A stretch of DNA of 64,000 bases, from assembly GCF_014397025.1 (NCBI RefSeq), contig NZ_JACJUO010000001.1, forward strand, positions 1,660,501-1,724,500. Direction: 5' to 3'. Below are positions 34,986 to 39,057 of this stretch, one piece after another (positions within the stretch are counted from its first letter, which is position 1; the number at the start of each line of letters is the position of its first letter). The translations under genes and the position numbers were made by a program. The notes beneath the pieces were generated by a model. The model was not told the DNA's origin, ran no database searches, and saw only the letters and a program-made list of their open reading frames with translations. This DNA comes from Ochrobactrum sp. Marseille-Q0166. Lineage in GTDB: Bacteria > Pseudomonadota > Alphaproteobacteria > Rhizobiales > Rhizobiaceae.

Positions 34986-35068
34986 TGGTGCGGATAGAGG
35001 GACTCGAACCCCCACGGTCTCCCGCCAGAACCTAAATCTGGTGCGTCTACCAATTTCGCCATATCCGC
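34986..35068 (-). tRNA. tRNA-Leu (anticodon UAG)
   Basis: On the minus strand, acceptor arm GCGGATA pairs with TATCCGC and a genome-encoded ACCA end follows. The anticodon stem CCAGA/TCTGG encloses TTTAGGT, giving anticodon TAG (reads CUN Leu codons). A variable arm GGCGGGAGACC and T-arm GGGGGTTCGAGTCCCTC are present. The long variable arm fits a class II Leu tRNA. Confidence 0.96.
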
Positions 35069-36989: not shown

Positions 36990-37259
36990 AACAACTCCCG
37001 AAGAATCTATGCGTTGAAGCCGTGAGGCACTAAGCGGCTGAGAACATATAGGAAACTCACCAGCCGGCAAACAAATACCTTCTGTCGCTTTACGGCAATT
37101 TTGTGCCTGACCAGTCTAATCGATTTAGCTCGTCGTGCGGAACCCGCAAAGCAGCTATGCAATCTTGGGTCTGCAAGTAGCGAAAACAATGAGTTATATC
37201 ATGAGCAACAAAACGAGATGAATTGAACCACAGTTCCTCAAAGATGAAGGAATAAAACG

Positions 37260-37406
37260 ATGAACCTGCTTCGCTCATACAACAACTGGCGCCGTTACCG
37301 CGATACTGTCAACGAGCTTAACCAGCTCTCGACTCGCGAACTTAACGATCTTGGCATTTCCCGCGCAGACATTCCGTTTGTCGCACGTCAGTCCAAGGGA
37401 CGCTAA
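37260..37406 (+). CDS. DUF1127 micro-protein (CcaF1-like)
   Basis: A 48-residue basic protein with the DUF1127 core: NWRRYRDTVNEL, then LSTRELNDLGISRADIPFVAR. An AAGGA ribosome site lies eight bases upstream. In Rhodobacter a DUF1127 protein (CcaF1) is encoded at the head of a transcript that also yields four CCUCCUCCC small RNAs, and CcaF1 is reported to be an RNA-binding protein. Four such hairpins follow here immediately. I infer the same organisation. Related proteins occur widely in alphaproteobacteria, often several per genome. Confidence 0.93.
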   Translation: MNLLRSYNNWRRYRDTVNELNQLSTRELNDLGISRADIPFVARQSKGR

Positions 37407-37423
37407 TCAGATTTGACTTTGCT

Positions 37424-37451
37424 GGGCCTGAATCCTCCTCCCATCAGGTCC
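37424..37451 (+). ncRNA. CcsR-like hairpin 1
   Basis: Stem GGGCCTGA with TCAGGTCC (one G-T pair) around a 12-base loop containing CCTCCTCCC (37434-37442). It begins 18 bases after the DUF1127 stop. Confidence 0.8.
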
Positions 37452-37457
37452 GGTTTG

Positions 37458-37489
37458 TCGCAAAGCGCTCCTCCTCCCATGCTTTGCGA
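37458..37489 (+). ncRNA. CcsR-like hairpin 2
   Basis: Stem TCGCAAAGC with GCTTTGCGA, nine perfect pairs, around a 14-base loop containing CCTCCTCCC (37470-37478). Confidence 0.82.
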
Positions 37490-37494
37490 TACCA

Positions 37495-37526
37495 AGACCG
37501 GTCTCTCCTCCTCCCAATTCCGGTCT
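37495..37526 (+). ncRNA. CcsR-like hairpin 3
   Basis: Stem AGACCGG with CCGGTCT, seven perfect pairs, around an 18-base loop containing CCTCCTCCC (37507-37515). Confidence 0.82.
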
Positions 37527-37532
37527 GACAAT

Positions 37533-37582
37533 AATGGCATCCGTCGCACCTCCTCCCGCGCCGGATGCCATTTGTTTTTGTG
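37533..37582 (+). ncRNA. CcsR-like hairpin 4, doubling as terminator
   Basis: Stem AATGGCATCCG with CGGATGCCATT, eleven perfect pairs, around an 18-base loop containing CCTCCTCCC (37549-37557). It is followed by TTTGTTTTTGT, so it can terminate the whole DUF1127-CcsR transcript before trmFO. Confidence 0.82.
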
Positions 37583-37650: not shown

Positions 37651-39057
37651 ATGTCAAAAGATACCAACCTCTCCCCCGTACATGTCGTAGGCGGCGGCCT
37701 TGCAGGCTCCGAAGCCGCGTGGCAAATCGCGCAGGCTGGCGTGCCTGTAATTTTGCATGAAATGCGCCCGGTCCGCGGCACAGACGCACATAAGACAGAG
37801 CAGCTGGCAGAGCTGGTCTGCTCGAATTCTTTCCGCTCAGACGACGCCGAGACAAATGCCGTCGGCGTACTCCATGCCGAAATGCGCCTTGCAGGTTCGC
37901 TGATCATGGCCTGTGCCGACGCACATCAGGTTCCAGCCGGTGGTGCACTCGCGGTCGATCGCGAAGGCTTTTCGCAGGCAGTGACTGCGAAACTAGAAGC
38001 GCACCCGCTGATTACGATTGAGCGCGAAGAAGTCACCGGCCTCCCACCCGAAGACTGGGGTACGACAATTGTTGCTACCGGCCCACTGACTGCGCCGACG
38101 CTTGCAGAAGCGATTCAGGCACAAACAGGTGCTGATGCACTCGCTTTCTTTGATGCCATTGCGCCGATCATCCATTTTGATTCGATCAATATGGATGTGT
38201 GCTGGTTCCAGTCGCGCTACGACAAGGTTGGACCCGGAGGCACTGGCAAGGACTACATCAACTGCCCCATGGACAAGGAGCAGTATGAGGCTTTCGTTGC
38301 TGCCCTTATCGAAGGTGACACGACCGATTTCAAGGAATGGGAAGGGACGCCCTATTTCGATGGCTGTCTGCCGATCGAAGTCATGGCCGAGCGCGGCCCG
38401 GAAACCTTGCGTCATGGTCCAATGAAGCCAATGGGCCTCACCAACGAACATAATCCGACGGTCAAACCTTATGCAGTGGTGCAGCTTCGTCAGGACAATG
38501 CGCTGGGCACACTTTACAACATGGTCGGTTTCCAGACGAAGCTGAAATACGGCTCACAGACCGGCATCTTCAAGATGATCCCCGGCCTTGAAAATGCGGA
38601 ATTTGCGCGTCTTGGCGGTCTGCACCGCAACACCTATCTCAATTCGCCAGTGCTTCTCGATAACGTTCTGCGGTTGAAATCTCGTCAAAACCTGCGCTTC
38701 GCCGGCCAAATTACCGGCTGTGAAGGTTACGTCGAATCATCGGCCATCGGCCTTCTCGCTGGCCGTTTCACTGCCGCTGAAAGACTCGGCAAGACACCAG
38801 TTGCACCACCTCAGACCACTGCTTTTGGCGCCCTGCTCGGCCATATCACTGGTGGTCACATCGTTGCCGACGACGATGAACCGGGCAAACGCTCGTTCCA
38901 ACCCATGAACGTCAATTTCGGCCTGTTCCCACCAATCGACGTACCAAAACCGGAAGGCAAGCGTCTGCGCGGCAAGGAAAAGACGATTGCAAAAAAGCGG
39001 GCCTTGTCTGCACGCGCACTCGCAGATTTCCAGGAGTGGCTCGGTAACAACGTATAA
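37651..39057 (+). CDS. trmFO: tRNA (uracil-5-)-methyltransferase TrmFO
   Basis: Folate/FAD-dependent enzyme that makes 5-methyluridine at tRNA position 54 using methylene-tetrahydrofolate. The N-terminal FAD-binding [19 protein letters not shown] and the TrmFO signature [31 protein letters not shown] (given in part: CSNSFRSDD) are clear. The 468 residues match the family length. An AAAGGAGGT ribosome site at 37631-37639 is unusually complete but 12 bases from the ATG. Confidence 0.96.

What the first reader, a model, noticed from the sequence alone, without database searches (positions are those of the whole stretch)
37260..37582. DUF1127 gene followed by four tandem CCTCCTCCC hairpins: CcsR/cuckoo sRNA cluster
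Four hairpins with different stems but the same CCTCCTCCC loop follow a DUF1127 gene at 36-42 base spacing, and the fourth doubles as a terminator. The loop is complementary to Shine-Dalgarno sequences. In Rhodobacter the same layout yields stress-induced CcsR RNAs that tune C1 metabolism. The copies are tighter here than I would expect for separately processed RNAs, so they may act as one multi-loop RNA, a sponge for SD-containing messages. Compensated stem divergence implies selection for structure.
Basis: partly seen in the sequence, partly recalled or inferred. Interest (0 to 1): 0.82.

Follow-up and report, generated by a model that had tools for sequence, protein, structure and literature searches.

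The report
DUF1127 operon with anti-Shine-Dalgarno RNA array
A tiny protein gene is followed by four RNA hairpins that can block ribosome-binding sites of other messages; this is a known family of regulatory RNA, and its likely switch here is a host-interaction regulator called VtlR/LsrB.

Summary
Four hairpins with CCTCCTCCC loops (37434, 37470, 37507, 37549) follow a 48-aa DUF1127 gene (37260-37406) and precede trmFO. The fold is far from chance (z -7.5), the tandem motif is absent from a reversed-pattern control, and 28 aligned arrays show changes on both sides in 18 of 44 stem pairs (0 of 500 shuffles). It is a member of a known kind: a cuckoo RNA locus of the DUF1127-linked ("CIN1") layout. 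Hairpins 2-4 pass Rfam's alpha-r14 (NfeR1) model (83.1 bits, cut-off 58.8); CcsR1 fails (28.3, cut-off 65.3), so CcsR is kin, not the family. The spacing is normal for alpha-r14, one three-hairpin RNA. VtlR's strongest reported targets in this genus are DUF1127 genes, so some of those transcripts probably also carry anti-Shine-Dalgarno RNAs. Best model: VtlR-driven DUF1127 mRNA whose 3' UTR gives a multi-loop RNA that represses mRNAs. Transcript, processing, binding and targets are untested.

The parts
37147..37161 (+). VtlR/LsrB-type box CAAAGCAGCTATGCA
   Evidence: 13 of 15 to the published box CAATGCAGCCATGCA (box from PMC12595884); fits A-N3-CA-N3-ATGC in 30 of 30 genus loci and the 11-mer GCAGCTATGCA is invariant there. 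Binding not tested.
37194..37199 (+). putative -10 element TTATAT
   Evidence: read from the sequence; invariant in the genus alignment; with its -35 no better than random to the NfeR1-type consensus, no sigma70 consensus match
37260..37406 (+). DUF1127 small protein gene, 48 aa
   Evidence: PF06568 E 1.9e-17; best-scoring of six DUF1127 matches in the genome
37421..37454 (+). hairpin 1, loop motif 37434-37442
   Evidence: fold; 8 of 11 pairs with changes on both sides in the aligned arrays
37453..37573 (+). alpha-r14-type RNA (hairpins 2-4)
   Evidence: Rfam RF02344, 83.1 bits, cut-off 58.8
37456..37491 (+). hairpin 2, loop motif 37470-37478
   Evidence: fold; 6 of 12 pairs with changes on both sides
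37495..37526 (+). hairpin 3, loop motif 37507-37515
   Evidence: fold; 100% of cells paired, 1 of 7 pairs with changes on both sides
37534..37579 (+). hairpin 4, loop motif 37549-37557, with T-rich tail 37572-37579: probable intrinsic terminator
   Evidence: fold; 10 of 14 pairs invariant, 3 with changes on both sides; tail read
37651..39057 (+). trmFO, conserved neighbour (not part of the RNA)
   Evidence: PF01134 E 8.4e-98; the locus was found beside it in named relatives

Best explanation
A cuckoo RNA (alpha-r14 type) locus of the DUF1127-linked kind. Transcription starts near 37206 under a VtlR/LsrB-type LysR regulator, reads the DUF1127 gene and runs through four hairpins, the last of which ends it. 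RNase cleavage, or simply the stable 3' end, leaves an RNA of about 120-170 nt with three or four exposed CCUCCUCCC loops. Each loop pairs with Shine-Dalgarno regions of the GGGAGGA type and blocks translation, with transport genes such as ABC solute-binding proteins as likely targets. Shown here by sequence: structure, covariation, family match, lack of a separate promoter signal, conserved box and operon layout. Inferred: the transcript and its start, cleavage, VtlR binding, repression and targets.
For: Alpha-r14 match over cut-off. Covariation that 0 of 500 shuffles reach. Only 14 bases lie between the DUF1127 stop and hairpin 1, and no promoter-like match in gene or spacer is better than random stretches. 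Box in 30 of 30 fetched genus loci, starting -111 to -117 from the start codon, and at 10 or more of 12 bases in 24 of 26 DUF1127-array loci against 116 of 2600 shuffles. In this genome three of six DUF1127 genes have the box (13, 12 and 14 of 15; the others at most 10), which matches the three VtlR-activated DUF1127 genes reported for Brucella (PMC12595884 passages). A LysR gene directly after trxB, with an AbcR-like RNA about 1.4 kb on, fits VtlR by synteny. NfeR1 has the same three loops, represses ntrB through them and is activated by LsrB (PMC10746234 passages). TGGGAGGA before ATG occurs 32 times against 2 for the reversed pattern; 9 of 26 resulting ORFs are ABC transporter parts.
Against: No RNA data here. 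The third boxed DUF1127 gene (L142) has no array, so box and array do not always go together; in Rhizobiaceae-type loci the box form TGCACAAATGCA sits before a DUF1127 gene with no array behind it. The 12-base box wording was chosen after seeing these loci and the loci are related; the published 15-mer at 11 or more of 15 is found before 19 of 98 DUF1127 frames against 80 of 1600 random stretches. The 12-base box at 10 or more also stands before 4 of 24 DUF1127 genes without an array, against 108 of 2400 shuffles. The ABC-transporter excess over a control Shine-Dalgarno (2 of 16) is not significant, p 0.11. Five of the 35 same-genus loci were not read.
Confidence: 0.72

Rival explanations
1. 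A true CcsR operon: RpoH-driven heat/oxidative stress transcript cut by RNase E into separate RNAs that tune C1 metabolism, with the DUF1127 protein helping maturation as CcaF1 does.
For: Same layout of DUF1127 then motif hairpins; weak CcsR1 hit (28.3 bits); CcaF1 with CcsR is the studied precedent (PMC10253847, PMC8307010 passages).
Against: CcsR1 cut-off missed (65.3 needed) while the alpha-r14 cut-off is met; a VtlR/LsrB-type box is conserved upstream; four hairpins within 151 bases look like one RNA, while the Rhodobacter relative RS0680a is described with two stem loops (PMC3927594, section 2.7). No RpoH model was scanned.
Confidence: 0.12
2. The hairpins only stabilise and end the DUF1127 mRNA (3' UTR structure) and have no trans role.
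For: They start 14 bases after the stop codon and hairpin 4 looks like a terminator.
Against: The loops mostly stay CCTCCTCCC while the stems change, which plain stabilisers would not need; the same loops form array genes without DUF1127 in this genome (L001, L003).
Confidence: 0.1
3. A sponge: the array binds Shine-Dalgarno regions or other RNAs broadly and titrates them rather than repressing set targets.
For: Four identical seeds in one RNA; CCUCC pairs with the core of most Shine-Dalgarno sequences (general knowledge).
Against: For NfeR1 the three loops are redundant seeds that repress particular mRNAs (PMC10746234); a sponge would need very high copy number, not tested.
Confidence: 0.1
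4. A cis element for trmFO: read-through transcripts let a loop mask the trmFO Shine-Dalgarno AGGAGG.
For: trmFO has AAAGGAGG upstream, complementary to the loops.
Against: Relatives L176 and L177 keep the array but have no AGGAGG before trmFO (only these two were looked at); a probable terminator lies between.
Confidence: 0.03

Closest known systems
alpha-r14 family / NfeR1 (Rfam RF02344)
   Same: Three hairpins with CCUCCUCCC loops, variable stems, hairpin spacing, about 120 nt; model cut-off met.
   Different: Here a fourth hairpin precedes them and the array lies in the 3' UTR of a DUF1127 gene without a promoter signal of its own; NfeR1 has its own sigma70 promoter under LsrB and NtrC (PMC10746234 passages).
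SmelA075/SmelA099 family and cuckoo RNAs (Reinkensmeier 2011; Reinkensmeier and Giegerich 2015)
   Same: Three or four hairpins per RNA with the same loop, several copies per genome (PMC3927594, section 2.7 read).
   Different: No basic difference seen; this is a Brucella-genus member. The 2015 paper was not held.
CIN1 locus and ccaF1-CcsR1-4 of Rhodobacter sphaeroides (Rfam RF02791)
   Same: DUF1127 gene directly followed by motif hairpins and a terminator.
   Different: CcsR1 model not met; VtlR/LsrB-type box upstream instead of a reported RpoHI/HII promoter; one compact array.
VtlR-activated DUF1127 genes (BAB1_0914, BAB2_0512, BAB2_0574; Atu1667)
   Same: Small DUF1127 gene with the VtlR box; three boxed genes in this genome. 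Which of them is the orthologue of which was not tested.
   Different: The passages read speak of small proteins, or of Atu1667 as a putative sRNA, not of a hairpin array behind the gene.
AbcR RNAs
   Same: VtlR/LsrB control of an AbcR RNA and a CUCCCA seed in print (PMC9751625, PMC7486931 passages); two AbcR-like loci here carry CCTCCTCCC.
   Different: Free-standing genes, one such loop, other fold.

Membership tests
alpha-r14 (RF02344) | Covariance model score over the curated cut-off | tested here: met
   83.1 bits, cut-off 58.8
alpha-r14 (RF02344) | Three hairpins each with CCUCCUCCC unpaired | tested here: met
   Hairpins 2-4; covariation
alpha-r14 (RF02344) | Trans repression through the loops | not testable with these tools
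   Known for NfeR1 (PMC10746234)
NfeR1-type free-standing gene | Own sigma70 promoter CTTAGAC-N17-CTATAT before the array | tested here: not met
   Best 8 of 13 in gene and spacer; 403 of 500 random stretches of the window reach 8 or more
CIN1 / DUF1127-linked cuckoo locus | Short DUF1127 gene with CcsR-like motif hairpins beside it | tested here: met
   43 of 80 named trmFO loci have an array of at least two exact loops and all 43 also have DUF1127. Definition taken from one sentence in PMC10253847.
CcsR (RF02791) | CcsR1 covariance model over cut-off | tested here: not met
   28.3 bits, cut-off 65.3
CcsR (RF02791) | RpoHI/RpoHII promoter | not tested
   No RpoH model was scanned; a VtlR/LsrB-type box is present
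CcsR (RF02791) | RNase E/CcaF1-dependent processing to separate RNAs | not testable with these tools
   No RNA data
VtlR/LsrB regulon | VtlR box upstream | tested here: met
   13 of 15; A-N3-CA-N3-ATGC in 30 of 30 genus loci
VtlR/LsrB regulon | VtlR gene present in the genome | tested here: met
   By synteny and Pfam only: LysR gene directly after trxB; no VtlR sequence was compared
VtlR/LsrB regulon | VtlR binding and activation | not testable with these tools
   Reported for Atu1667 and its Brucella orthologues (PMC7486931 passages)

The most novel reading that the evidence does not exclude
In Brucellaceae and neighbouring families the DUF1127 genes that VtlR/LsrB activates most strongly are, at least in part, host transcripts of anti-Shine-Dalgarno RNA arrays. 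VtlR would then run one RNA programme, AbcR plus cuckoo arrays with a shared CUCCUCCC seed, and effects put down to the small proteins may come from their 3' UTRs. The same RNA-plus-DUF1127 cassette would be under RpoH control in Rhodobacter and under LysR control in Rhizobiales, at a locus beside trmFO.
Probability: 0.45. Interest if true: 0.6.

Novelty: new member of a known kind. Interest (0 to 1): 0.42.

Why it matters
The RNA family and its DUF1127 link are known. What this adds is a likely regulator and a way to test a puzzle. [quoted passage not shown] If some of those genes carry anti-Shine-Dalgarno arrays in their 3' UTR, protein and RNA effects have to be told apart. The locus also lies beside trmFO in many Rhizobiales genera, in two gene orders, so the growth of a multi-seed RNA can be traced.

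Tried and rejected
Dispersed-repeat origin: rejected, the 9-mer is no commoner than its reverse and 12 of 18 sites lie in four arrays. Own promoter for the array: no signal above random. Cis control of trmFO: Shine-Dalgarno not kept in L176 and L177. Target class: the ABC-transporter excess after TGGGAGGA is only a trend (9 of 26 against 2 of 16, p 0.11; solute-binding proteins 7 of 26 against 1 of 16, p 0.10). Full nine-base complement before ATG: 3 hits, two of them the arrays' own reverse strand. One search used a wrong start estimate and was replaced. (no output) and 36 were false starts for the DUF1127 frames; one search replaced them. The 11-mer GCAGCYATGCA has 15 sites in the genome (reversed pattern 4); 2 are before the DUF1127-array genes; the other 13 were not examined gene by gene, and Rfam found among their loci only one tRNA.

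Papers: section 2.7 and passages of PMC3927594; outline and passages of PMC12218461; passages only of PMC10746234, PMC12595884, PMC7486931, PMC11975290, PMC12501420, PMC10253847, PMC9751625, PMC7143759, PMC8307010. Reinkensmeier and Giegerich 2015 and Gruetzner 2021 were not held. Eisfeld 2021, on a LysR regulator and many sRNAs of Agrobacterium, was seen only in a reference list and may hold part of the regulator link. The searches in whose listings and passages I saw no statement of a VtlR-driven cuckoo array were made; they cover open PMC papers only.

Full report
1. Observation. The sequence is as described. A 48-aa ORF (37260-37406) matches DUF1127 (PF06568, E 1.9e-17). Four CCTCCTCCC motifs stand at 37434, 37470, 37507 and 37549 and nowhere else in the window. 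RNA folding puts each in the loop of its own hairpin; the fold is 7.5 standard deviations better than shuffles. The 9-mer by itself is not enriched in the genome (18 sites, 18 for the reversed pattern), but tandem pairs are found 8 times, in four arrays, and 0 times for the reversed pattern.

2. Selection on structure. In 35 of 35 same-genus genomes part or all of 37100-37660 matches. The 30 loci that were fetched all hold a 48-aa DUF1127 gene and motif hairpins; by exact CTCCTCCC, 21 have four loops, 7 have three and 2 have two. For the alignment 28 of these 30 were used: L163 is identical to L162 over the array and L150 differs from L149 by one base, so both were left out; I set the ends of four rows (L160, L166, L174, L175) by hand to reach all hairpins. 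The four stems give 94.7% paired cells, 18 of 44 pairs with changes on both sides and 79 such cells; no shuffle of 500 reaches any of the five measures, and slid structures fall to 28-39% paired. Hairpins 1 and 2 carry most covariation (8 of 11 and 6 of 12 pairs); hairpin 4, the probable terminator, is nearly fixed (10 of 14 pairs never vary). As the tool warns, related rows and a structure taken from one row favour such results; the double changes are the stronger evidence.

3. Family. Rfam's alpha-r14 model scores 83.1 bits (cut-off 58.8) over 37453-37573, hairpins 2-4. CcsR1 scores 28.3 (cut-off 65.3). PMC3927594 section 2.7 describes Rhizobiales RNAs with three or four hairpins, the same loop and variable stems. 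The genome has four matches above cut-off and one weak one: the window, a second DUF1127-linked array on C2 (L004), two without DUF1127 beside them (L001, L003), and L005. Of 121 genomes sampled in the family 116 have a match and 108 one above cut-off.

4. Neighbourhood and history. Of 80 named trmFO loci, the best 80 of 590, 66 have a DUF1127 gene upstream on the same strand, 43 an array of at least two exact loops, and all 43 of these also DUF1127; in 26 the array starts within 150 bases of a DUF1127 stop. Two gene orders appear. In the 26 (Brucella, Phyllobacterium, Mesorhizobium, Aurantimonas, Roseibium and others) it is DUF1127 (one or two), then array (one or more units), then trmFO, not always directly. 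In 16 loci that I sorted by eye, most of them Rhizobiaceae, arrays come first, then DUF1127 genes, then trmFO. Loops with a changed motif are not counted and a few loci have short flanks (L024 has 136 bases), so these are lower bounds.

5. Regulator. The published VtlR box is CAATGCAGCCATGCA (PMC12595884), or GCAT-N3-TG-N3-T on the other strand (PMC7486931). The window has CAAAGCAGCTATGCA at 37147-37161, 13 of 15. Of six DUF1127 genes in this genome three have the box (13, 12 and 14 of 15), the other three at most 10. This agrees with the three VtlR-activated DUF1127 genes of Brucella and a fourth without the box (PMC12595884). All 30 genus loci keep A-N3-CA-N3-ATGC, and a 15-base stretch covering it is the best conserved one upstream of the gene. 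Across families TGCWGCYATGCA, at 10 or more of 12, is found before 24 of 26 DUF1127-array genes against 116 of 2600 shuffles, and at 11 or more before 14 of 26 against 9 of 2600; in DUF1127 loci without an array 4 of 24 reach 10 against 108 of 2400 shuffles. In the 16 loci of the other order a variant, TGCACAAATGCA, stands before the last DUF1127 gene, 11 or more of 12 in 12 of 16 against 4 of 1600. Both wordings were chosen after seeing loci, and the loci are related; the fairer test is the published 15-mer, 11 or more in 19 of 98 DUF1127 frames against 80 of 1600 random stretches. A 301-aa LysR gene follows trxB directly, with an AbcR-like RNA (under the suhB cut-off) about 1.4 kb further, close to what is printed for vtlR. 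No promoter signal for the array alone exceeds random.

6. Mechanism. For NfeR1, three redundant loops block translation of ntrB and others, and LsrB activates it (PMC10746234 passages). By analogy the window's RNA should repress mRNAs whose Shine-Dalgarno reads GGGAGGA. TGGGAGGA 3-11 bases before ATG occurs 32 times against 2 for the reversed pattern. Thirty of the 32 became loci; they give 26 distinct ORFs of at least 40 aa (three loci give none, two give the same), of which 7 are solute-binding proteins and 2 other ABC parts. A control Shine-Dalgarno, AAGGAGGA, gives 16 ORFs from 23 loci with 2 ABC parts; the difference is not significant (p 0.11). Two AbcR-like loci also carry CCTCCTCCC, so 14 of 18 sites in the genome lie in such RNAs.

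7. Verdict. A well-supported new member of a known kind: a DUF1127-linked cuckoo array of alpha-r14 type. The added content is the likely VtlR/LsrB control and the consequence that some DUF1127 targets of VtlR are also RNA genes. The third boxed DUF1127 gene has no array, transcript and binding are untested, and a subscription paper on a LysR regulator and sRNAs of Agrobacterium could not be read; these limit the claim.

Noticed in passing
L004/L140 (G000:C2:1432219-1432560): Second DUF1127-array operon: two CCTCCTCCC hairpins plus a terminator-like hairpin with loop GTCCTCCCAC, VtlR box 12 of 15, and a possible own promoter CTTAAAC-N18-CTAGGT (10 of 13; 3 of 500 random stretches reach 10).
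   Followed up: partly
L232 and L233 (G000:C2:1426352-1426455 and C1:1127489-1127593): Two AbcR-like RNAs, below the suhB cut-off, carry the same CCTCCTCCC loop; the C1 one has CAGCTATGCA upstream and lies near trxB and a LysR gene.
   Followed up: partly
L005:1501-1619 (G000:C2:338925-339043): A single hairpin with loop ACTCCTCCCA lies right behind what looks like a sugar-binding-protein gene (not searched) and scores weakly as alpha-r14 (32.6 bits); possibly a one-unit cuckoo hairpin between operon genes.
   Followed up: no
L142 (G000:C1:2224862-2224972, minus strand): Third DUF1127 gene with the best VtlR box (14 of 15) but no array behind it; an alpha-r14 gene (L003) lies about 2.6 kb downstream on the same strand.
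   Followed up: no
L026, L028, L031, L088: Arrays upstream of trmFO have grown in units: three triplets in Mesorhizobium jarvisii and Pseudaminobacter, five doublets in an Aurantimonas, nine loops in a row in a Pleomorphomonas.
   Followed up: no
window 34989-35068: tRNA gene on the minus strand (Rfam).
   Followed up: no
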